A DNA stretch of 64,000 nucleotides from Treponema primitia ZAS-2. Lineage in GTDB: Bacteria; Spirochaetota; Spirochaetia; Treponematales; Breznakiellaceae. The position numbers and the translations under genes are program-made. Shown in pieces: positions 5,499 through 47,390 of this stretch. The notes under the pieces are model-generated. The model searched no databases, was not told where the DNA came from, and saw only the letters and a list, made by a program, of their open reading frames with translations. Each line of letters opens with the position of its first letter. Position 1 is the first letter of the stretch. The stretch is from contig NC_015578.1 in assembly GCF_000214375.1 (NCBI RefSeq), positions 434,001-498,000 of the forward strand. Reading direction: 5' to 3'.

Positions 5499-6356
5499 AT
5501 GAAAAAAATCGCAATACAGTTATTTGGTCATTTGCGCACTTACAGATCTACTTATAAAAATTTTATAAAAAATGTTGTGGAAGCAAATAGAAATAATGGT
5601 TATGACGTAGATGTCTTCATTCATACATGGACAGAATCCGATCATTCAAATATTACTTGGTATAATCAGAATGGACAAAAAAGTAATAAACCAGTAACTG
5701 ATGATATTATTAAAGAAATTTATAAATATTATAGCCCTAAAAAATTTTTGATAGAAAATCAAATTGAAGTTACGGATCATATAATTACTTCAAAATTTGG
5801 ATTTAATCATAGTTACAAACATCTTTTTAACTTTACATATACTGTATATAAATCATCGGAATTGAGGCATGATTACAAAAATGAGTTTGGGGAAATTTAT
5901 GATTATGTAATAGTTACGCGGCCTGATATCATGTTTTATAAACCATTCATACTGGATGACATTCTTGGTTTTTACCAAACAAGAAATATAGATATTCCTG
6001 GAAATGGAATATTTTATATTGGTGGAGAGTATAATAAAATTGTGGATAGACGGTTTATTGGCGGAAATGATTTATTATATTTTGGAACTGAATATTCGAT
6101 TGATAAAGCTACTAATCTTCATACAACGTTAAATCGTAATGAATTAATAAGGAATTTTTATAGCGGTGATTATTTATGGTATAATCATTGGATTAATGGC
6201 GCAATGCTTGAGCCAATTGGAATAAAAAATACATATTGGCGATTAATTGGCAAGAGACAGAGAATAAAATTACATGTATTAATATTTCGAATATTTAAAA
6301 AAATGATAAAATGTTTATTACCTTATGGTATAGTACATTATCTTATTAAGAGATAA
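5499..6356 (+). CDS. Capsule-cluster protein, probable glycosyltransferase
   Basis: A 285-residue protein beginning KKIAIQLFGHLRTY with a later VDVFIHTW segment and a YDYVIVTRPDIMFYKP stretch around residue 140 that looks like the DxD region of a GT-A enzyme. Similar proteins turn up in bacterial surface-polysaccharide loci, usually without a named function. There is no signal peptide and only a weakly hydrophobic C-terminus, so a cytoplasmic or membrane-peripheral place is likely. A good GAGAGAAAG ribosome site precedes the ATG. Assignment as a glycosyltransferase rests on the RPD motif and context. Confidence 0.5.
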   Translation: MKKIAIQLFGHLRTYRSTYKNFIKNVVEANRNNGYDVDVFIHTWTESDHSNITWYNQNGQKSNKPVTDDIIKEIYKYYSPKKFLIENQIEVTDHIITSKFGFNHSYKHLFNFTYTVYKSSELRHDYKNEFGEIYDYVIVTRPDIMFYKPFILDDILGFYQTRNIDIPGNGIFYIGGEYNKIVDRRFIGGNDLLYFGTEYSIDKATNLHTTLNRNELIRNFYSGDYLWYNHWINGAMLEPIGIKNTYWRLIGKRQRIKLHVLIFRIFKKMIKCLLPYGIVHYLIKR

Positions 6357-38122: not shown

Positions 38123-38174
38123 CAATTTATATGGCTGCAAATCTTTTTTTGCAAAACTTTCTTGACACTACCTA
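38123..38174 (-). mobile_element. Relic of an IS256-family element end
   Basis: Read on the minus strand from 38174: GGTAGTGTCAAGAAAGTTTT, then GCAAAA and GATTTGCAGCCATATAAA. This closely matches the left end of the IS at 46066-46112, in inverted orientation. No transposase lies beside it. It may be a solo end left after deletion, or one side of a former composite transposon. Confidence 0.65.
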
Positions 38175-38198: not shown

Positions 38199-40688
38199 TT
38201 AAACTGGTATAGATACTGGTTGCTGTATTTGAGTTATTATTGGCGTGTATAGATCAACATCTGTTTCTGGCGTTGATATTGAGACAATTAAAGAATACCG
38301 TACCTTTTTATCATAGAGTTTTAGATTTGTTCTTTCCCGCCACCAGCCTATGACAGAGTATACGGCTACAAAATTCGCATCACATAAGTCTACTGCATTT
38401 ACTTTTTTAAAATCAGAATGAATAGAGCCTACATCACGGTTTTGGGGGCCAAGAAACCATTCTGTACTACCGCTATAACCACTGCCACGATCATTATCTT
38501 CCCTCATTTTGACATCAATACGTTTCAGGAAGTCCTTTTTGGTTTCATTTATATTTTTTACATCAAAACGAAGCTGGCAAGATGGATAACGGTATTTGTC
38601 ACGCCATCCTATTTCACCAGGCCCGGGTTCAACAAAATATGATAAAGTAATTTTTAGCAATGCAGGTGTTTCCCCAATACTACGGAGAATATCAGAAGCC
38701 CAAGGTAATGTATGTAAATGCATTTCTTTCATTTTTTTGTTTTTGGCGAAAGGCTGTATTTCGCCTTCGATGACAAGATTTACACGATTTGAAATACATT
38801 GTATTGCACGTTCAAGATTTGGTATACCATAACCACAAGTACGCAATAAATCCCGCCTTCCATAGCCTTTCTTATCCTTGCCAGCTATAAACAGACGTTT
38901 CATTTCACTCGTCCAATCAGCAGAGTGTACTATTAAGGCTCGCACTGTTTCAGGCCAAATACCCGGATATTCTGACATGATTTGAGCGGCAATCCATGAT
39001 GCTTGAGCCGTTGCAGAACTTGTTGCGCAAATGGTACTAAAAGGATGTTTAAGATGTTGATGACTGGTAGTTAATAATGATAAATCGGAACAATCCATAT
39101 ATGCGCTGCCATCTGTAGCAACATTACCGCCATCGCAAAGGATTTCAGGCTTTATCGGCCACTTAGAAGCCCAAATTTTAGAAGTAGAACTGTAAGGGCT
39201 TAATTCACCTGAATTAGCAACCGCATGATAAGATTTCAAATTTTCATCTAAAATAGTAATATCGTTGCTAAATGCTCCTACGGTGATGGCATTCCAGGCT
39301 TGACCAGGACTTTGCACGGGGCTAATCAAATTGGCATCAGGATACCCGGCTTTCATGTCTGAAAAGTCAACATTACCTGCGCTTATGAAAAATAACCGTT
39401 TTGTGTCATCATCTGCACCAGAGATGATAGTATCAATAGATCCTGACCAAGATGAGGGGGTTCCATCGGTTATGCTGTATTTATCATCTTCGGTTATCGC
39501 CATGCATAATGTTCGTACATTATTTGGCCGGGCAATTTCGGCAAGAGATATTGCTTGTTTGGTTATATCCCCATAAAGCTGCGGGTCATTTGCTCCAGGC
39601 GGCGGCGGTAATATTTTAACTGATTCAAGGCGGTGATGAATTACTATCTTTTCTTTACTTAACAGTTTTTCTTTTAGGTTATGGAACAAGGCTACACCAG
39701 CCATTTCCGTTCCATGACCATCATGATCTGATGTTTGCCAGGCTGCATTGACGGATTGCAAACAATCATCTTCGCATGATCCTGAAAGAAGGGGATGACC
39801 ATTATTCAATCCTGTATCAAGCAGGCATATTGACACATTTGTAAAATCATACTGGAGTCTCGAAAATAACTCATTGGCAAATTCTTTTTGTTCACCGGGC
39901 GATAATTTCTCAAAAAAATTATTTGGTTCTTCAAATCTGCGAATTTCCGCTATGGTATCAAGGCTTTTTATCAACCTTGCAAGCTGATCCGAGTTTGCTC
40001 TGATGAGTTTTACGATTCGTTCTTTAAAGTGAATGAAATTATCATTGCAAGGTATATTTAAAAGTGAACAAACGGCTTTGAAGTCATTATTATTTTCTTT
40101 CGCATTATCCGTACTTTCATTATTATTCTCATCGCATAATAACCAAATTTCACATCATACTGGGGTTGTGTCAGGTATACCTTCGTCTTTTCCTATCCAG
40201 AATGATTTTAAAATGGCGGGGGTAATACTTTCGATACTGTCCAATAAAGGCCTGCTTGGTATTTTTTCTGCATTATTTTTGACAGCGTCCGCATACTTTA
40301 AAATTCTTTGTGCAAAAAAATTCTTTTTATCCTCTGGAACGAAAACTGTTGCCTGAATTATCCCATCGATCTCTTTAACATTTAATAGCCTAATACCTTG
40401 CCTTAAATCTTCCAGGCTTTTTGTTACCAATTCATAGCCTTGTTTTCCGGTAAAGACTATATTTACTCCCTTTTTATATTGTATTGCGGCAATTTGATCT
40501 TTAGAAAGGCTTTTTATAAAAGTTTCATTTTGCTTATATACATTTGACAACCCTTTATTCAACATAGCGGCATGGGCTTCACGCTGCCTTTCAGGGAATC
40601 TTGTCGGATCCATACGCTTCCCCTGTGCGGAATAAGGCAATTTGGTCAAAGTATTGTTTAGGAATATATTTTTCTTTTCAACCGGCAT
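38199..40688 (-). pseudogene. ietS: Subtilisin-like protease (IetS-like), interrupted by an in-frame TGA
   Basis: An 829-codon gene broken by TGA at 40155-40157. The first 177 codons and the rest share one frame, and 60 codons between the stop and the next possible start remain open, so this is a single nonsense change. The reading around it, TTPV-stop-CEIWLL, suggests a lost tryptophan (TGG to TGA). The S8 triad is intact: SICLLDTG (Asp), HDGHGTEMAG (His) and CATSSATAQASW (Ser). It follows the AAA ATPase gene by one base. This protease-ATPase pair matches the IetAS plasmid-stability/anti-phage system, with IetS as the toxic protease. A TTG start at 39974 could still give a 591-residue product with the whole protease core. 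Confidence 0.8.
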
Positions 40689-40689
40689 A

Positions 40690-41652
40690 TTAGGCCCTCT
40701 TATCCGTGTATATCAAGAGCCTTTCATTGATAAGATTAAGCAAGAGTTTTTCTTCGATAGGTTTATCGGTCAAAATTGCCGATTTAATAGCATCTGTGCA
40801 AATGCGGGTAATTTCAGCATGATTGAGGGTTGACGCTTTTTCTATTATTTCATTTGTCGGGTAAAATGCGGGTTGATAGACAGTTAATTTTGTAATAAAT
40901 AATTTTTGAATGTCTTTAGCAGAGGGTAAAGAATAATGCAATACATCATCAAAACGGCGGAACAGTGCTTTATCAAGTATATTTTGCCTGTTTGTTGCGG
41001 CGATAATAAGGCTTCCTGATGAATCCTGTTCAAGCATCTGCAAGAATTAGTTTAATACACGGCGCATTTCCCCTACTTCGTTATCAATTCCACGGTCGGC
41101 ACCAATGGCATCAAATTCATCAAAAAAATAAACGCCCAAAGAGTTTTCAATTGAATCGAATATTTGACGAAGTTTGACACTCGTTTCTCCCATGAATTTA
41201 GTTACCAGTTTATCCATTTGAACGGTAAATAACGGTAGGCCAAGTTCAGAGGCAATAATAGAAGCGGTAAGTGTTTTGCCAGTACCCGGCGGCCCTTCAA
41301 TAAGGATTTTACGGCGATTATAAATTCCATGTTTTTGAAGTTTTTTCCGGTTAAAATACTCATTGGTAATGCGTTCTATCCGCTCAAGGATTTCATCAGA
41401 GGTTATTAAATCTTGCAGCTTATTGTCAGGGAAGGTCATTAAAAGACTTTCATTTTGCGGATTTTCTGATTGGATAGTGCGGAAATGGGAAACGGGCATT
41501 TTTTCAATAGCCTGTTTTATATCACGGGCAAGTATTTCGTGCCCCTGTTTTGCTTCATAGGCGGCAATTTGCAGGGCTGTGGTTTTAAACCGTTCTCCAT
41601 CACGGTCAAAATGAGAACGAATAAGGGTTTTTATTTGTTCGCCTGTTGCCAT
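40690..41652 (-). pseudogene. ietA: AAA ATPase (IetA-like), interrupted by an in-frame TAA
   Basis: A 320-codon gene with TAA at 41047-41049. The frame reads EMRRVLN-stop-FLQMLEQD; serine is usual at this place, so TCA to TAA is likely. Walker A (GPPGTGKT), Walker B (YFFDEFDAIG), sensor 1 (IIAATN) and the arginine finger region (LFRRFDD) surround the stop, which splits the ATPase core. ATG 41652 is chosen over an in-frame codon at 41691 because a 44-codon gene ends two bases before it. In IetAS the ATPase holds the protease in check; a broken regulator would be tolerated only if the protease is also weakened. Confidence 0.82.
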
Positions 41653-41653
41653 G

Positions 41654-41788
41654 TTATTTACCTTCCCCCAATTCAACTTTAGGCAATCCATTTACAAAAC
41701 TGCCAGTCAGGACACTACCATTTATAACAGAAATGAGCAAGTCTAGTTTATACCAGATCGGGTTATACTCATTAACCCTATCAGCCAT
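41654..41788 (-). CDS. 44-residue ORF between specificity subunit and AAA ATPase
   Basis: Starts at ATG 41788 inside the last codons of the specificity gene (8-base overlap ATGGCTGA) and stops one base before the ATPase ATG. The product (MADRVNEYNPIWYKLDLLIS..., ending VELGEGK) is slightly hydrophobic in its middle. Tight packing on both sides argues that it is real. It resembles nothing recognisable; it may be an adaptor or antitoxin-type part, or only a coupling ORF. Confidence 0.5.
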   Translation of the reverse strand: MADRVNEYNPIWYKLDLLISVINGSVLTGSFVNGLPKVELGEGK

Positions 41789-43193
41789 TCTTAACCTCAC
41801 TGCTGTCCAAGCCTTCTATTTCCCTCTCAACCATTGCCTTTGCTTCCTCCAAAAGATTTTCACTTTCTTTGCGGAGGACAAAACTTTTGTTGATTAAATC
41901 AGCAATTTGGCGTTGGATACTAGCGTCAATTAAAGGAATGGGAATATTTGAAAATTCCGTATTGCTTATGGCGGTTAAAATTGTCCCGGAGCAACCCTGT
42001 TTTAATAAATTTTGCAGAGGTTCTGATTTTATTAAAACAAGGAGTGTTTCAGAATTTATTTTTAATGAATTAATGACATAAAAACCCGTTGAACATAAAG
42101 CATCATCATAATTATGCGGCACTAGGGCACAACTGCTTAAAGAGCCTTCTATAGTTGATACAATAACATCATTGGCATTAACTTTGCGTCGTGCGCGGGA
42201 GGGCAAGTCTTTGCCCTGCGCGGTTGTACAGCCTGTTATATTGCCTGATTTACCAATATCAGCAAGCTCAATATACTGGTATTCGATCTCATTTTCCGGT
42301 GAAAAATTATTATCCTTTATTTCACAAGCAACGCCTAGTGGTTCATAACCATTTATATATTTTTTTACAAGTTTTTCGTAATCTTCATATTTTTCCTGGT
42401 AATATTCCGCATCAAGGCGGCCTGTAGAACCAAAGGACTTTTTGAATGTCTTGACATTCACGTTTGCATTATTGGGGGTAAAGTCTTTTAAACCAATTGC
42501 TTCAAGCAGTAGATTTTCAGCATGGTGATAGAAGGAAACAGCTTTTCCTAAATGCTTGTGTGCAGTAAAATATAGTCCCTCTATTTTACTATTAAACGAT
42601 TTGTTAAAAATAGGAATATCAATTTCTTTAAATTTTGCCGGGCTAAAATTGGTCTGATTGCTCGTCATTGAATATTTATCAATTTCATTCCTTCCATATT
42701 TGCAAGATAGAAAGGCAACTAATGTAGAAGAATTTATTATTTCAGTTTTAGGCCGTATTTTAAATAAATATGAAGCATAGGCATATTCTGTATTTTCGAG
42801 AACTAATGCGCTTCTGCCTACTAAGTTAGGGTTACCATTTGTTCGACAGATCAATACATCACCTTGTTTCAATTTTAAACTTTCATATTCGTCTTTCGAA
42901 ATAAGCTTACAATATTTATTTGGAATATCAATAAACCGTGAATTAAATTCATTCAGACGCAGAATTGGGTAGCCCTCTTTTTCTTCATTCAATTCTTTAG
43001 AAGTTCCATATTGTACAAAATCAATTATATCCATTCCTTTCATTGTTTTTAATTGTACTATGTTCTGTTGTATCCAAAATGAAGATTCCAATCTAAAATC
43101 ATTTTGCTGTAAACATTTAGAAATCAAAACCTCGCTTGCTTCCAGCCCTTCCAACAAACGCTTGTATTTGCGCTTATCGAAAGGGCTATTCAA
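41781..43193 (-). CDS. hsdS: Restriction-modification specificity subunit (HsdS-like)
   Basis: A 470-residue protein with two target-recognition domains: the first around FVQYGTSKELNEEKEGYPILRLNE to about residue 195, the second around CEIKDNNFSPENEIEYQYIELADIG to about residue 420. Each is followed by a coiled spacer (KHLGKAVSFYHHAENLL and DLINKSFVLRKESENLLEEA). Recognition is thus expected to be a split DNA site. It overlaps the methyltransferase gene by four bases (ATGA). Confidence 0.88.
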   Translation of the reverse strand: MNSPFDKRKYKRLLEGLEASEVLISKCLQQNDFRLESSFWIQQNIVQLKTMKGMDIIDFVQYGTSKELNEEKEGYPILRLNEFNSRFIDIPNKYCKLISKDEYESLKLKQGDVLICRTNGNPNLVGRSALVLENTEYAYASYLFKIRPKTEIINSSTLVAFLSCKYGRNEIDKYSMTSNQTNFSPAKFKEIDIPIFNKSFNSKIEGLYFTAHKHLGKAVSFYHHAENLLLEAIGLKDFTPNNANVNVKTFKKSFGSTGRLDAEYYQEKYEDYEKLVKKYINGYEPLGVACEIKDNNFSPENEIEYQYIELADIGKSGNITGCTTAQGKDLPSRARRKVNANDVIVSTIEGSLSSCALVPHNYDDALCSTGFYVINSLKINSETLLVLIKSEPLQNLLKQGCSGTILTAISNTEFSNIPIPLIDASIQRQIADLINKSFVLRKESENLLEEAKAMVEREIEGLDSSEVKNG

Positions 43194-45208
43194 AAAAAAC
43201 TTAGATTCTCTTTTTTGGCAAACTCAATAAACGCTTCGGCTATGCCGTCTTTTGTCAGGCCGTCATGGTTGAATAAATCGTGTTTGACTATCGGATGTCC
43301 GTGTTTGTCGTTGAATGGTTCGTAGATTTTATCACCTGACGTATCCTTGCTTGGCTCCTGCATGGTGGCAAAAAAAATGGGGTAATCATCTTTTTTGGGG
43401 CAAAGTTTGGCATCCCATTTTTGTACAAAAAGCACCGATGTTTTGGTTCCGGTATGAGGCTTGAACACATTACCGTGAAGGCCGACAACCGCCAAAATTC
43501 GGCAGTGTTCAGCGATAAAATTCCGTATGTTTTTATCGCTTGAATTGTTAAATCTGCCCTGAGGCAGGACTATTGCCATGCGTCCGCCGGGTTTTAGAAA
43601 TTCAAGGTTGCGTTCTATAAACAGAATATCTCTGCCAATTTTACTTACTTTTTTTCCATCAGGTTTCTTCGCTATGTCGTGAGTAGAAATTATTACATCA
43701 TCGGTAATATCTCCGGCAAAAGGAGGATTAGCCATTAAGAGGTCAAACCTGAAAGTTTTGTTGCTACCTTCTTTTTGGCGCAGCTCTTCCAGGCGGGTAT
43801 AACCTTCATTATATATTCCAAGCCATGCACGGTCTCTTGTTGATTCTTCCCATCGTGTATAGTCAAGGGTATTAAGTTTTAGCACGTTGCTATGGCCGTC
43901 CCCGGCAATAATATTCAAGGTGCGTCCAATACGGACGGATCGCTCGTCAAAATCAATGGCAAATATCTTATTCTTTACATAATCAGTCTCTTTTTTGGAG
44001 CGGCTGGAATTGGTAAAAAGATTGGGTTTATTAGGATTGATTTTCCCCCAAACATACATAGTGGTATGCATGGGGAAACCGCAGCTTCCGGCGGCGGTAT
44101 CAATCATGGTTTCGTTTTCTTTGGGGTTTAACATCCTAACGCACATATCAATAACATAGCGGGGGGTAAAATATTGGCCCTTTTCACCCTTCTGTTCTTT
44201 GTTTACCAGATATTCAAAAGCATCGTCCACGACCTCAAGATTTGAGTTAAAGAGCTTTATATCTTGAAGATAAGACACGCAGGTTTTTAGGTGATTGTGG
44301 GACAGTTTAAATTTGGTGCCGGGCTCAAATATGCCGTTCCATTCATTCTGCGCTGATGCAAAGAGGTCGCTTATTCGCTTAAATGCTTCAGTCTCGGTTC
44401 CGGTATTCCTGAATTCAAGCTGGCGGAATTTTTTATCTTTTATATCATCAAGATTAATATCATTCTGAATGAGGGCTTCTATATTATCAGCATCGGCGCC
44501 GCTTGAAAATTCATCATACAATTTGGTAAATAGCAATTTGAAAATTTCTTCAAAACTGTCTACGCCGGAATTGGCAAGAACGATATCTTCAAATTCAAGG
44601 ATTATATCTTTTAGTGTGCGGTCTTTGAGTTTGTCATTCTGCATTAACTGTTTTATGGTGTAGCGGACATTCAGGACTTCGGAAAGGGTCTGGTCTGCCC
44701 TGGGGAGGTAGGACAATTTTTCAAGATAGGTTGTCTTTGTTTTAGGGTTTTCCTGTTTGAAATAGTATTCCGCTTCGTGGCCGTCTGTCCATACGCCAAT
44801 AGAAGCGCCTGAAAATTTGCAATACGATTCTAGCTGCTTCTTGCCTTCCTTTGCGGTAGGGTTGGCGGGACTTTTAAGCTCAACGATTATGTATGCCTGG
44901 GAAGGGCGTTCCTTTTCGTATATTACAATATCAGCCCGCTTGCCGCTGGAACCCATGGTAACTTCACTTTGTACATCAAACTGTTCCTGATCATAGCCAT
45001 ATTCGGTAATGAGTTTATCAAGGTAAAGCTGGCGGACTATTTCTTCGGGCGTTAGACGGATTTCTTTCTTGCGGATTAAGCAGGTAACAAAATATTTGGT
45101 ATTTTTTTCAATGATGCGTTTTTCCAGGGCTTTGATTTTATCTGAATCAAATTGGGTAAGTTTATAGTTTGAATTCTTCAATATCGTAGAGATTATATCC
45201 AATGCCAT
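43190..45208 (-). CDS. hsdM: Nuclease-methyltransferase fusion subunit of a Type IIB/Type I-like RM system
   Basis: A 672-residue protein. Residues 30-150 form a PD-(D/E)XK/HsdR-N-type domain, with RADIVIYEK and YIIVELKSP giving the D and E-x-K. From about 330 on there is an N6-adenine methyltransferase: DTAAGSCGF (motif I) and LLMANPPFAGD (motif IV, NPPF). A separate specificity gene follows. This arrangement equals the BcgI-type A/B pair, in which one polypeptide cuts and methylates and no helicase HsdR is needed. No hsdR gene lies nearby. A 60-base gap with a perfect inverted repeat separates it from the upstream repressor gene. Confidence 0.88.
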   Translation of the reverse strand: MALDIISTILKNSNYKLTQFDSDKIKALEKRIIEKNTKYFVTCLIRKKEIRLTPEEIVRQLYLDKLITEYGYDQEQFDVQSEVTMGSSGKRADIVIYEKERPSQAYIIVELKSPANPTAKEGKKQLESYCKFSGASIGVWTDGHEAEYYFKQENPKTKTTYLEKLSYLPRADQTLSEVLNVRYTIKQLMQNDKLKDRTLKDIILEFEDIVLANSGVDSFEEIFKLLFTKLYDEFSSGADADNIEALIQNDINLDDIKDKKFRQLEFRNTGTETEAFKRISDLFASAQNEWNGIFEPGTKFKLSHNHLKTCVSYLQDIKLFNSNLEVVDDAFEYLVNKEQKGEKGQYFTPRYVIDMCVRMLNPKENETMIDTAAGSCGFPMHTTMYVWGKINPNKPNLFTNSSRSKKETDYVKNKIFAIDFDERSVRIGRTLNIIAGDGHSNVLKLNTLDYTRWEESTRDRAWLGIYNEGYTRLEELRQKEGSNKTFRFDLLMANPPFAGDITDDVIISTHDIAKKPDGKKVSKIGRDILFIERNLEFLKPGGRMAIVLPQGRFNNSSDKNIRNFIAEHCRILAVVGLHGNVFKPHTGTKTSVLFVQKWDAKLCPKKDDYPIFFATMQEPSKDTSGDKIYEPFNDKHGHPIVKHDLFNHDGLTKDGIAEAFIEFAKKENLSFF

Positions 45209-45251
45209 AATACTTCTTCCCCTCTCTGTTGCTGGCTGGCCGGGTCAATAT

Positions 45252-45266
45252 TACCCTAACAGGGTA
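45252..45266 (-). promoter_or_regulatory. Inverted repeat between repressor and RM genes
   Basis: TACCCT-AAC-AGGGTA, a perfect 6-base inverted repeat with 3-base spacer, 44 bases before the RM start codon. It has no T-run, so an operator for the neighbouring repressor is more likely than a terminator. Confidence 0.45.
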
Positions 45267-45268
45267 GC

Positions 45269-45895
45269 CTACACCTTATGATAGCACGCCACTACCCGCC
45301 CGGCTATACTGATGCCGGCTAACTCCTCGCCAGTGAAGCGGCGGGGTTCGTAGGTGGGGTTTGCGCTGTATAATACTATGGTTTGGCTTGCAATATCCCG
45401 GTCTACCCGCTTTACCACCAGAGAATTCCCTATGGAGACTACAAAAATACCGTTCCCCTCGGTGATGCCGGGGTAGAAAATGGCTATGTCCCCATCGCAG
45501 ATGTGGGCTTCTATCATACTGTCCCCGGCCACATAGACTGCCATAAGGAGATCCGGGGGGTGGGAGCCTATGAGGTTGCGGGGTATCTGGAAAACCCGCT
45601 TTTGGGGGTATTCCTCTACCGCCCTTCCGTGCCCGGCGGCGGCTTCTTGATCCAGTAGTTCTATCTCTACAGTGTCCGGGTCGAGGCCGGAGGGGCCGTT
45701 TCCGGTAAGAAACCAGTGCAGATTGACGTTGTAAACTTCGGCGAGGCGGTCAAGGAGGCTGCGGGAAGGTTTGAGAAGGCCGGAGGAAATTTGAGAACCC
45801 ATCGACATTGAAAGCCCCAGGCTTTTGGCAAAGTCTTTTTTGGAAAGTCCTACTTTTCCCCGGATAAAATCGTACCGTTTCCCTTCGTTATCCAT
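45269..45895 (-). CDS. LexA/CI-like repressor (XRE helix-turn-helix + S24 autocleavage domain)
   Basis: A 208-residue protein. Residues 5-65 form an XRE helix-turn-helix (LSKKDFAKSLGLSMSMGSQIS). The C-terminal half is an S24 peptidase: the Ala-Gly cleavage site in EAAAGHGR, the serine in AGDSMIEAH and the lysine in LVVKRVD. Proteins of this plan cut themselves when RecA is activated by DNA damage, lifting repression. Upstream of the RM and IetAS-like genes on the same strand, it is the likely control switch for the island. Confidence 0.88.
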   Translation of the reverse strand: MDNEGKRYDFIRGKVGLSKKDFAKSLGLSMSMGSQISSGLLKPSRSLLDRLAEVYNVNLHWFLTGNGPSGLDPDTVEIELLDQEAAAGHGRAVEEYPQKRVFQIPRNLIGSHPPDLLMAVYVAGDSMIEAHICDGDIAIFYPGITEGNGIFVVSIGNSLVVKRVDRDIASQTIVLYSANPTYEPRRFTGEELAGISIAGRVVACYHKV

Positions 45896-45934: not shown

Positions 45935-45963
45935 AGTTTAGTATACTTGAAAATGTTTGTAAA
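45935..45963 (-). promoter_or_regulatory. Promoter of the S24 repressor
   Basis: TTTACA (45963-45958), 17-base spacer, TAAACT (45940-45935) on the minus strand. An AGTATACT palindrome sits in the spacer and might bind the repressor itself. Confidence 0.5.
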
Positions 45964-46012: not shown

Positions 46013-46065
46013 TCCTGCTTTTTAAATCTACTGGTTTTGACTTTGTAAATCATAGCGGCTTTGGG

Positions 46066-47390
46066 TAGTGTCAAGAAAGTTTCGCAAAATTGATTTGCAG
46101 TCATATAAATAAAATTAAGCCGTTACTGAAACAGCCGTTTCCAGATGTTTCATGCTCATGTATTTCTTGTCCCCCCACTGGCCACCAGCCACATGCCGCA
46201 GCCGCGCGCATACCAGCATTAATGCTGAATTACCGTCAGGAAAACAGCCGACCACCCTCGTCCGCCGCCTGATTTCACGGTTTACCCGTTCAATCATATT
46301 ATTCGTGCGGATTCGCGTCCAATGCTCATACGGAAAATCCGTGTACGCGAGCGTCTCTTCAATACTGTCCTCTACCGTCTTTGCCGCCTCCTTTAATTTC
46401 ATCTCCCGCAGAGCAGTTGCCACTTGGCGGGCCTTCTCCCGGGCAGCCTCACGGCTCTCTTGGGCATGGATTGCTTTCAGCATCTTGGCAACCACCGCTA
46501 TCTTTGTGCGGGGTACTGTCGAAAATACATTCCGGTAAAAATGAATCGTACAACGCTGGTATTTTGCTTCGGGAAACGTCTCTCCGACCGCTTCCAGCAT
46601 TCCAAGGCATTTGTCCCCAATGATGAGCTTAACTCCCTTAAGTCCACGGGATCTCAGCCATTGGAAAAATGAAACCTAGCTTGCTTTGTCTTCCTTCATC
46701 CCTTCCGCTGCCCCTAAAACCTCCCGGTACCCTTCTTCATTTACCGCTGTTGCCACAAGTACGCTGACATTTTCATAACTGCCGCCCCAATTCCGCTTTA
46801 AATAAATACCATCCACATACACATACGGGTATTGGCTTTCATTCAATGGCCGATTCCGCCAGGTCTCAATATTCCCATAGGCTTTTTTGTTCAACTCGCT
46901 GATGGTAGCCGGTGATACCTTGCTTCCCCATAACGCCTCAGTTATATCTTCCACCCGCCTAACCGACACCCCGGCCAGATACATTTCCATCAGCGCTTCC
47001 TCCACGCTGCTTTCCCGTCTCCGGTACCGTTCTATGATTGCCGTCTCAAAAGGTACCCCTTTCAGTTTGGGTACCGTAAGCTCAACTTCACCGGAGGTCG
47101 TTCCCAGTTTCCTTTTATAGCTTCCGCTCCGGTACCCTTTCCGGCCTTCCGTCCGCTCATATTTGGCAGCACCGGTTAACTGGGCGGCTTCCTGGTCCAA
47201 AAGTCCATTCAACGTTTCCTCAACGCTGCTTCTCACCAATTCCTTTAGCTCGTCCTTGATAACTCCCTCATTGAACTGTATAATCTTCTTAGACATGGTT
47301 TGTATGCTCCTTTGACAAATAAGTTGTGGTAACTCATTTTATCATTTGGCTGCAAACCTGTCTTTATTTTGCGAAACTTATTGTACCTTA
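46066..47390 (-). mobile_element. IS256-family insertion sequence
   Basis: About 1.3 kb. The ends are imperfect inverted repeats: left GTAGTGTCAAGAAAGTTTCG and right (minus strand) GGTACAATAAGTTTCGCAAA, both then reaching a TTTGCAG block. It holds one transposase gene. No clear 8-9-base target duplication was found at the flanks, so it may have recombined after insertion. Confidence 0.8.
46115..47296 (-). pseudogene. IS256-family transposase, interrupted by an in-frame TAG
   Basis: A 393-codon mutator-type transposase with TAG at 46676-46678; both sides are in the same frame. The reading KEDKAS-stop-VSFFQW matches the usual ...S-W-VSFFQWL, so TGG to TAG is likely. Catalytic parts are otherwise present: YVDGIYLKRNWGG (D), LIIGDKCLG (D) and NREIRRRTRVVGCFPDGNSA (E). 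Transposition from this copy alone would need suppression or help from another copy. Confidence 0.88.

What the first reader, a model, noticed from the sequence alone, without database searches (positions are those of the whole stretch)
38199..45895. SOS-type repressor, fused-nuclease RM system and IetAS-like pair in one minus-strand array
The order repressor - RM - specificity - small ORF - ATPase - protease has overlaps or 1-8 base spacing from the RM gene on. An S24 repressor with intact autocleavage residues above a restriction system suggests release of defence genes by DNA damage. IetAS is an established anti-phage/plasmid-stability pair; its joining to a BcgI-like system under such a switch is unusual.
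Basis: partly seen in the sequence, partly recalled or inferred. Interest (0 to 1): 0.75.

Follow-up and report, generated by a model that had tools for sequence, protein, structure and literature searches.

The report
SOS-type repressor heading swappable defence genes
In a 4.06-Mb spirochaete genome (by size probably the termite-gut species Treponema primitia), a self-cleaving DNA-damage-type repressor stands at the head of an apparently intact restriction system and a broken second anti-phage pair, and three sister copies of the repressor head other defence genes, which suggests a damage-triggered switch with interchangeable defence cargo.

Summary
The array is real: S24 repressor, fused nuclease-methylase, specificity subunit, small ORF, AAA ATPase and subtilase, all on the minus strand, packed from the RM gene onward. 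Three corrections. (1) IetA and IetS are each cut by one in-frame stop, so only repressor plus RM looks functional today. (2) The small ORF resembles the last ~37 residues of a Type ISP restriction enzyme and is probably a relic. (3) RM+IetAS is not a conserved set: this Type IIB-like RM travels with S alone in relatives, and IetAS adjoins other RM types. The repressor idea gains support. Three paralogues in the genome (51-54% identical, cleavage residues conserved) each head defence cargo (two Type ISP RMs, one OLD-like ATPase). Two stand divergent from the genome's only intact imuB-dnaE2 mutagenesis cassettes. In those two loci a 5.7-kb dnaE2-imuB-DUF72-repressor block is 95% identical up to 7 bp past the repressor stop, after which the cargo differs. 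Best reading: a LexA/CI-type, presumably RecA-triggered controller of adjacent defence operons, in the role of CapW, CapHP and CapKS but of another protein family. Damage induction and operator binding are inferred, not shown. New variant of a known kind.

The parts
45269..45895 (-). REP: HTH + S24 LexA/CI-type repressor, 208 aa; predicted cleavage Ala87-Gly88, catalytic Ser126/Lys162
   Evidence: Pfam PF00717 64.1 bits, PF01381 27.1 bits; phmmer to LexA and UmuD chains; residues conserved in three paralogues and a G258 homologue
45935..45963 (-). Candidate promoter of the array (TTTACA-17-TAAACT) about 40 bp upstream of REP; the TTTACA element aligns in all four REP loci
   Evidence: consensus match only
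45252..45266 (-). TACCCTGTTAGGGTA inverted repeat in the 60-bp REP-RM gap; not significant on its own (105 of 1000 shuffles reach it)
43190..45208 (-). RM: fused restriction-methylation protein, 672 aa; HSDR_N_2 nuclease domain (res. 54-157, D...ExK present) and N6_Mtase (res. 325-641, DTAAGSCGF and NPPF motifs)
   Evidence: nearest solved relative RM.BsaXI, Type IIB
41781..43193 (-). S: specificity subunit, 470 aa, two target-recognition regions; 4-bp overlap with RM
   Evidence: PF01420; PADLOC Specificity_I in two stretches
41654..41788 (-). Small ORF, 44 aa, colinear with the C-terminal tail of Type ISP enzymes (54% over 37 aa; 67/111 identical DNA positions with the L039 gene); probable relic
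40690..41652 (-). ietA-like AAA ATPase gene, interrupted
   Evidence: PADLOC IetA 161 bits and 69 bits for the two halves; PDLC04232 216 bits over the whole with 1 TAA
41047..41049 (-). In-frame TAA inside the ATPase domain of ietA
38199..40688 (-). ietS-like subtilase gene, interrupted; catalytic D/H/S motifs all lie after the stop
   Evidence: PF00082 203 bits; PADLOC IetS 102 bits
40155..40157 (-). In-frame TGA upstream of the protease domain of ietS
46064..47390 (-). Degenerate Mutator/IS256-type element; transposase split in two ORFs (46115-46600, 46676-47296); right end faces the array (left limit approximate)
   Evidence: PF00872
38125..38172 (+). 48-bp inverted relic of the same IS end, closing the other side of the array
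   Evidence: 90% identity

Best explanation
This is a repressor-headed defence locus with exchangeable cargo. REP, a LexA/CI-type S24 repressor, probably binds its own promoter and holds down one transcript carrying REP and the genes behind it. When DNA damage or phage replication builds RecA filaments on single-stranded DNA, REP cuts itself at Ala87-Gly88 and the operon rises. The present working cargo is a Type IIB-like restriction-modification pair (fused nuclease-methylase plus S), which methylates its own bipartite sites and cuts unmodified foreign DNA. The last two genes are a recently inactivated IetAS-like pair, and between S and IetA lies the tail of a lost Type ISP enzyme. So the cargo was assembled by replacement: a Type ISP enzyme, as still found behind two REP paralogues and directly upstream of IetAS in genome G020, was largely displaced by RM-S. 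Shown by sequence: gene content, order, interruptions, paralogous loci, cargo exchange at the repressor boundary, linkage to mutagenic polymerases. Inferred: promoter use, operator binding, RecA-dependent cleavage, damage induction, RM activity, and the replacement history.
For: Anatomy and spacing. Autocleavage residues intact; the canonical LexA is a separate gene. Four REP copies in the genome, each followed by defence genes: window RM-S; L039 and L040 Type ISP RM; L041 OLD/AriA-like ATPase. The genome's only two intact imuB-dnaE2 cassettes are both divergent from a REP. L040 and L041 are 94.8% identical over 5,706 bp up to 7 bp past the REP stop, then unrelated. L039 and L040 REPs are 94% identical after the first 60 alignment columns but 55% in the HTH part, fitting operator diversification. 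A 17-bp palindrome in the shared divergent promoter occurs exactly twice in 4.06 Mb, both times there. G258 homologue divergent from umuD-IMS-recQ. ISP relic; ISP-IetA-IetS in L093. No terminator inside the array.
Against: No operator could be identified at the window's own REP promoter. REP here is only 51-54% identical to its paralogues and lacks a divergent polymerase cassette (an IS sits there). A fused nuclease-methylase under tight repression would leave host DNA unmethylated, so full on/off control is hard to reconcile with a working RM unless basal expression suffices. S24 repressors also belong to prophages: the best phage hits are CI repressors at 29% identity. Cargo behind REP-like genes outside this genome is sparse: an FRG-domain protein in G089, nothing co-directional in G258.
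Confidence: 0.6

Rival explanations
1. REP controls only itself (and, at the sister loci, the divergent polymerase cassette). RM-S is expressed constitutively from its own promoter, as a fused restriction-methylation enzyme would need, and lies behind REP only because this site collects defence genes.
For: The 60-bp REP-RM gap is the only sizeable gap; promoter-like matches are abundant in the region (37 against 23 expected); a fused R-M protein cannot be induced without risk to unmethylated host DNA.
Against: Four of four REP copies have co-directional defence cargo directly behind; no terminator in the gap; the cargo boundary between two sister loci coincides with the REP stop codon.
Confidence: 0.27
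2. REP is a stray prophage-type CI repressor left near unrelated defence genes, with no functional link.
For: S24 CI repressors of phages are detectable relatives; a more distant homologue in G094 lies a few kb from a terminase gene.
Against: Two of the four close copies stand at imuB-dnaE2, and the G258 copy at umuD-IMS-recQ; none of the genes typed beside the close copies is a phage structural gene.
Confidence: 0.1
3. IetAS is still active despite the stops, through readthrough, reinitiation or an error in the deposited sequence.
For: Both frames are otherwise fully open; a start codon follows the ietA stop closely.
Against: Two different stop codons (TAA, TGA) in adjacent genes, both consistent with substitutions; ietA is cut inside its ATPase domain and ietS before the protease domain. 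Homopolymer errors would give indels, not substitutions.
Confidence: 0.07
4. The array is a reduced MADS-type composite system (MAD2 methylase, MAD5 specificity, ATPase and protease parts).
For: RM and S score to NCBIfam MADS2 and MADS5 models (286 and 115 bits).
Against: Both are far below the curated cut-offs (720, 400); IetA matches mad8 only weakly (18 bits); no match to other MAD models was listed among the array proteins.
Confidence: 0.03

Closest known systems
DNA-damage-responsive controllers of adjacent immune operons: CapW/BrxR, CapH+CapP, CapK+CapS (PMC13373217)
   Same: A repressor gene directly upstream of diverse, exchangeable immune operons, with DNA damage as the likely trigger
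   Different: REP is a single-chain S24 autopeptidase of the LexA/CI type; the 2026 CapKS paper names no S24 or LexA member among these controllers; two REP paralogues also face mutagenic polymerase cassettes
LexA in lexA-imuA-imuB-dnaE2 cassettes (PMC3765255)
   Same: S24 repressor linked to imuB-dnaE2 (at paralogous loci)
   Different: REP has an HTH_3-type N-terminus, is far below the LexA equivalog cut-off (44 against 111 bits), coexists with a true LexA, and has defence genes on its other side
RptR, repressor of a Type I RM defence island (PMC12255303)
   Same: Dedicated repressor of an RM-centred defence island
   Different: RptR is described as a small transcriptional regulator; the paper's text holds no mention of S24, LexA, SOS or a peptidase
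Type IIB restriction enzymes BsaXI and BcgI (PMC11997821)
   Same: Fused nuclease-methylase chain plus separate S subunit
   Different: Only moderately similar in sequence to RM.BsaXI (78 bits); site and double-cut behaviour unknown
IetAS anti-phage pair
   Same: AAA ATPase followed by S8 protease, 1-bp spacing, PADLOC models match
   Different: Both genes carry a stop; scores are below the NCBIfam equivalog cut-offs, as for intact spirochaete relatives too

Membership tests
LexA/CI-type S24 autocleaving repressors | N-terminal DNA-binding domain plus C-terminal Peptidase_S24 | tested here: met
   PF01381 and PF00717 over cut-off
LexA/CI-type S24 autocleaving repressors | Ala/Cys-Gly cleavage site and Ser-Lys dyad | tested here: met
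   Ala87-Gly88, Ser126, Lys162; alignment with LexA and paralogues
LexA/CI-type S24 autocleaving repressors | RecA-stimulated self-cleavage | not testable with these tools
   needs biochemistry
LexA sensu stricto | TIGR00498 above curated cut-off | tested here: not met
   44 bits against 110.95; the genome's LexA scores 189
Type IIB restriction enzymes | Nuclease and N6-methylase in one chain, separate S subunit | tested here: met
Type IIB restriction enzymes | Cleavage on both sides of a bipartite site | not testable with these tools
   needs enzyme assay
IetAS | Adjacent IetA-type ATPase and IetS-type subtilase | tested here: met
   PADLOC IetA and IetS matches
IetAS | Intact coding frames | tested here: not met
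   one in-frame stop in each gene
IetAS | NCBIfam equivalog cut-offs (510 and 900 bits) | tested here: not met
   fragments score 118 and 59 (IetA) and 44 (IetS) bits; an intact relative also scores only 194 and 52
MADS | MAD2 and MAD5 above cut-off with other MAD genes | tested here: not met
   286 of 720 and 115 of 400 bits; no other MAD match except a weak hit of the ATPase to mad8
Controllers of adjacent immune pathways (Cap-type role) | Repressor gene at the head of diverse immune operons | tested here: met
   four REP loci in one genome with three kinds of cargo
Controllers of adjacent immune pathways (Cap-type role) | Operon expression rises on DNA damage | not testable with these tools
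   needs transcript data
CapW/BrxR or CapH+CapP | WYL domain, or HTH plus separate metallopeptidase | tested here: not met
   REP is HTH + S24 only

The most novel reading that the evidence does not exclude
An S24 autocleaving repressor family acts as a portable, RecA-triggered controller of interchangeable immune cargo. Individual copies carry exchanged DNA-binding domains so that each obeys its own operator, and some copies induce restriction and error-prone polymerases together from one divergent promoter: a fourth class of damage-responsive defence controller that couples immunity to mutagenesis.
Probability: 0.42. Interest if true: 0.75.

Novelty: new variant of a known kind. Interest (0 to 1): 0.55.

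Why it matters
The known damage-responsive controllers of immune operons (CapW, CapHP, CapKS) do not include a LexA/CI-type autopeptidase in the paper read here. A genome with four copies of one such repressor, each heading defence cargo and two facing the imuB-dnaE2 mutagenesis genes, makes a direct link between the SOS response, restriction and mutagenesis testable. It also raises a sharp question: how a fused restriction-methylation enzyme can be put under an inducible switch without self-damage. The finding as first written (IetAS joined to a BcgI-like system) matters less, because IetAS is broken here and the joining is not conserved.

Tried and rejected
The first genome-wide contig scan with the RM protein returned no relative; whole-genome searches did. 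RM orthologues in Spirochaetota (L028-L036) and on plasmids have no IetAS beside them, so a conserved RM-IetAS unit was rejected. IetA neighbourhoods in 13 spirochaete loci and 74 usable GTDB-wide loci showed no REP and no Type IIB-like RM beside IetAS. Upstream co-directional close neighbours were found in 30 of 74; among these Methylase_S and N6_N4_Mtase appear 3 times each and ResIII twice. Membership in MADS was rejected on cut-offs. The inverted repeat in the REP-RM gap is no better than shuffles (105/1000) and no perfect repeat with 6-bp arms was found upstream of the window's REP. An empty-site comparison with G321 failed: the TatD gene is conserved (56%) but the neighbouring genes are not. 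Sixty same-family genomes have no match to the IetS fragment besides the window's own. Readthrough of the stops was considered and judged unlikely.
Full report
Observation. The window lies in a 4,059,867-bp single-contig genome, whose size matches Treponema primitia ZAS-2 as I remember it (not checked against a named record). REP (208 aa) combines an HTH with Peptidase_S24. RM (672 aa) combines HSDR_N_2 with N6_Mtase. S (470 aa) is a Methylase_S protein. The last two genes match PADLOC IetA and IetS models. From RM onward the genes overlap or abut: 4-bp overlap, 8-bp overlap, 1 bp, 1 bp. REP and RM are 60 bp apart.

Decay of the IetAS pair. Each of the two genes is one frame with a single internal stop: TAA at 41049-41047 in ietA and TGA at 40157-40155 in ietS. 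No indel is present and the rest of both frames is open, so the loss looks recent. The ietA stop falls inside the ATPase domain and the ietS stop before the protease domain. Intact homologues exist in many genomes. The IetA start is best placed at 41652, where the homologues begin.

The restriction system. The nearest solved relative of RM is BsaXI, a Type IIB enzyme built as (RM)2S (PMC11997821). S has two target-recognition stretches. RM keeps the D...ExK nuclease motif and the methylase motifs DTAAGSCGF and NPPF. RM-S is a self-contained portable pair: orthologues occur in Spirochaetota (47-70% identity), usually with an S gene beside them and without IetAS, on a Klebsiella plasmid as RM plus S, and on a cyanobacterial plasmid as a single longer protein.

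IetAS in its other settings. Among 296 spirochaete genomes 14 carry a true IetA, the window's own included. In several an RM or methylase gene adjoins it: N6_N4_Mtase in L085, Eco57I-type in L088, methylase plus TaqI_C specificity in L089, Type ISP in L093, S plus methylase downstream in L095. In 74 usable GTDB-wide loci, restriction genes are next to IetAS in a minority. None has REP or a Type IIB-like RM. So IetAS beside some RM is ordinary, and this exact join is a local mosaic.

The small ORF. Its 44 residues align without gaps to the C-terminal tail of the Type ISP enzymes behind two REP paralogues (54% over 37 aa; 67 of 111 identical DNA positions with the L039 gene). L093 shows the order ISP-IetA-IetS, and L039 and L040 show REP-ISP. 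The simplest history is REP-ISP-IetA-IetS with most of ISP later displaced by RM-S. This is an inference from a short match.

The repressor. REP keeps Ala87-Gly88, Ser126 and Lys162. A canonical LexA is encoded elsewhere (189 bits). Three paralogues lie at 1.06, 2.21 and 3.43 Mb. Behind them come a Type ISP RM (preceded by a 342-aa protein), a second Type ISP RM (preceded by a short unidentified ORF), and an OLD/AriA-like ATPase. The 2.21 and 3.43 Mb copies are divergent from DUF72-imuB-dnaE2, and these are the only intact imuB-dnaE2 cassettes in the genome. Those two loci share 5,706 bp at 94.8% identity, ending 7 bp after the REP stop, where the cargo changes completely. The 1.06 and 2.21 Mb loci share REP and ISP at 86-91% DNA identity, and the former keeps a 62-bp relic of the DUF72 side. 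REPs from these two are 94% identical in the C-terminal part but 55% in the HTH part, as expected if operator specificity was exchanged. In the shared divergent promoter lies GTGATTAAAATAATCAC, found exactly twice in the genome, both times there; as these two loci are copies, this counts as one observation. In genome G258 a 42% homologue is divergent from umuD, an IMS gene and recQ. Together these place the REP family in the DNA-damage response and at the head of defence genes.

Mechanism. I infer that REP represses its own promoter (candidate TTTACA-17-TAAACT) and by readthrough the cargo, and that RecA-stimulated self-cleavage releases it. Against tight control: a fused nuclease-methylase needs methylation before cleavage, so basal expression or modest induction is more likely than off/on. 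No operator was found at the window's promoter.

Mobility. The array is bracketed by inward-facing ends of one IS256/Mutator-type element, a degenerate copy upstream of REP and a 48-bp relic downstream of ietS. Arrival as a transposon-like unit is possible. No empty site could be shown.

Comparison and verdict. In role REP resembles CapW/BrxR, CapH+CapP and CapK+CapS, the damage-responsive controllers of adjacent immune operons, but it is of another protein family; S24 and LexA are not mentioned in that paper (PMC13373217). The literature searches made here showed no paper describing an S24 controller of RM cargo, which is not proof of absence. The gene array is confirmed, the IetAS part is a decayed pair, and the repressor part is stronger than first stated.

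Noticed in passing
L040:3499-9199 and L041:3744-9443 (2.20 and 3.43 Mb of the same genome): Near-identical (94.8%) duplicated modules dnaE2-imuB-DUF72-REP with wholly different cargo after the REP stop codon.
   Followed up: yes
L039:8048-8770 against L040:8570-9199: REP proteins with near-identical C-terminal parts (94%) but divergent HTH parts (55%), suggesting exchange of DNA-binding domains.
   Followed up: partly
L093:4074-12421: Type ISP restriction enzyme directly upstream of an intact IetA-IetS pair in genome G020.
   Followed up: partly
L090:3609-3929 and 5840-6202: Two stand-alone fragments (106 and 120 aa) matching the C-terminal end of Type ISP enzymes upstream of IetA in genome G029.
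   Followed up: no
L098:9422-12854: A 42% REP homologue divergent from umuD (S24), an IMS-domain gene and a RecQ-like helicase.
   Followed up: partly
G000:C1:2171628-2171849 (L191): Short relic of imuB (81% over 77 residues) about 34 kb from the intact cassette at 2.205 Mb.
   Followed up: no
L193:7995-11534: Cyanobacterial plasmid pAQ6 encodes an RM orthologue as one longer protein, probably with the specificity part fused.
   Followed up: no
L099:7767-9534: A more distant REP homologue 110 bp upstream of a co-directional FRG-domain gene in genome G089.
   Followed up: no
window 38125-38172 and 46064-47390: Inward-facing ends of one Mutator/IS256-type element bracket the array; no other copy of this element was found in the genome.
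   Followed up: partly
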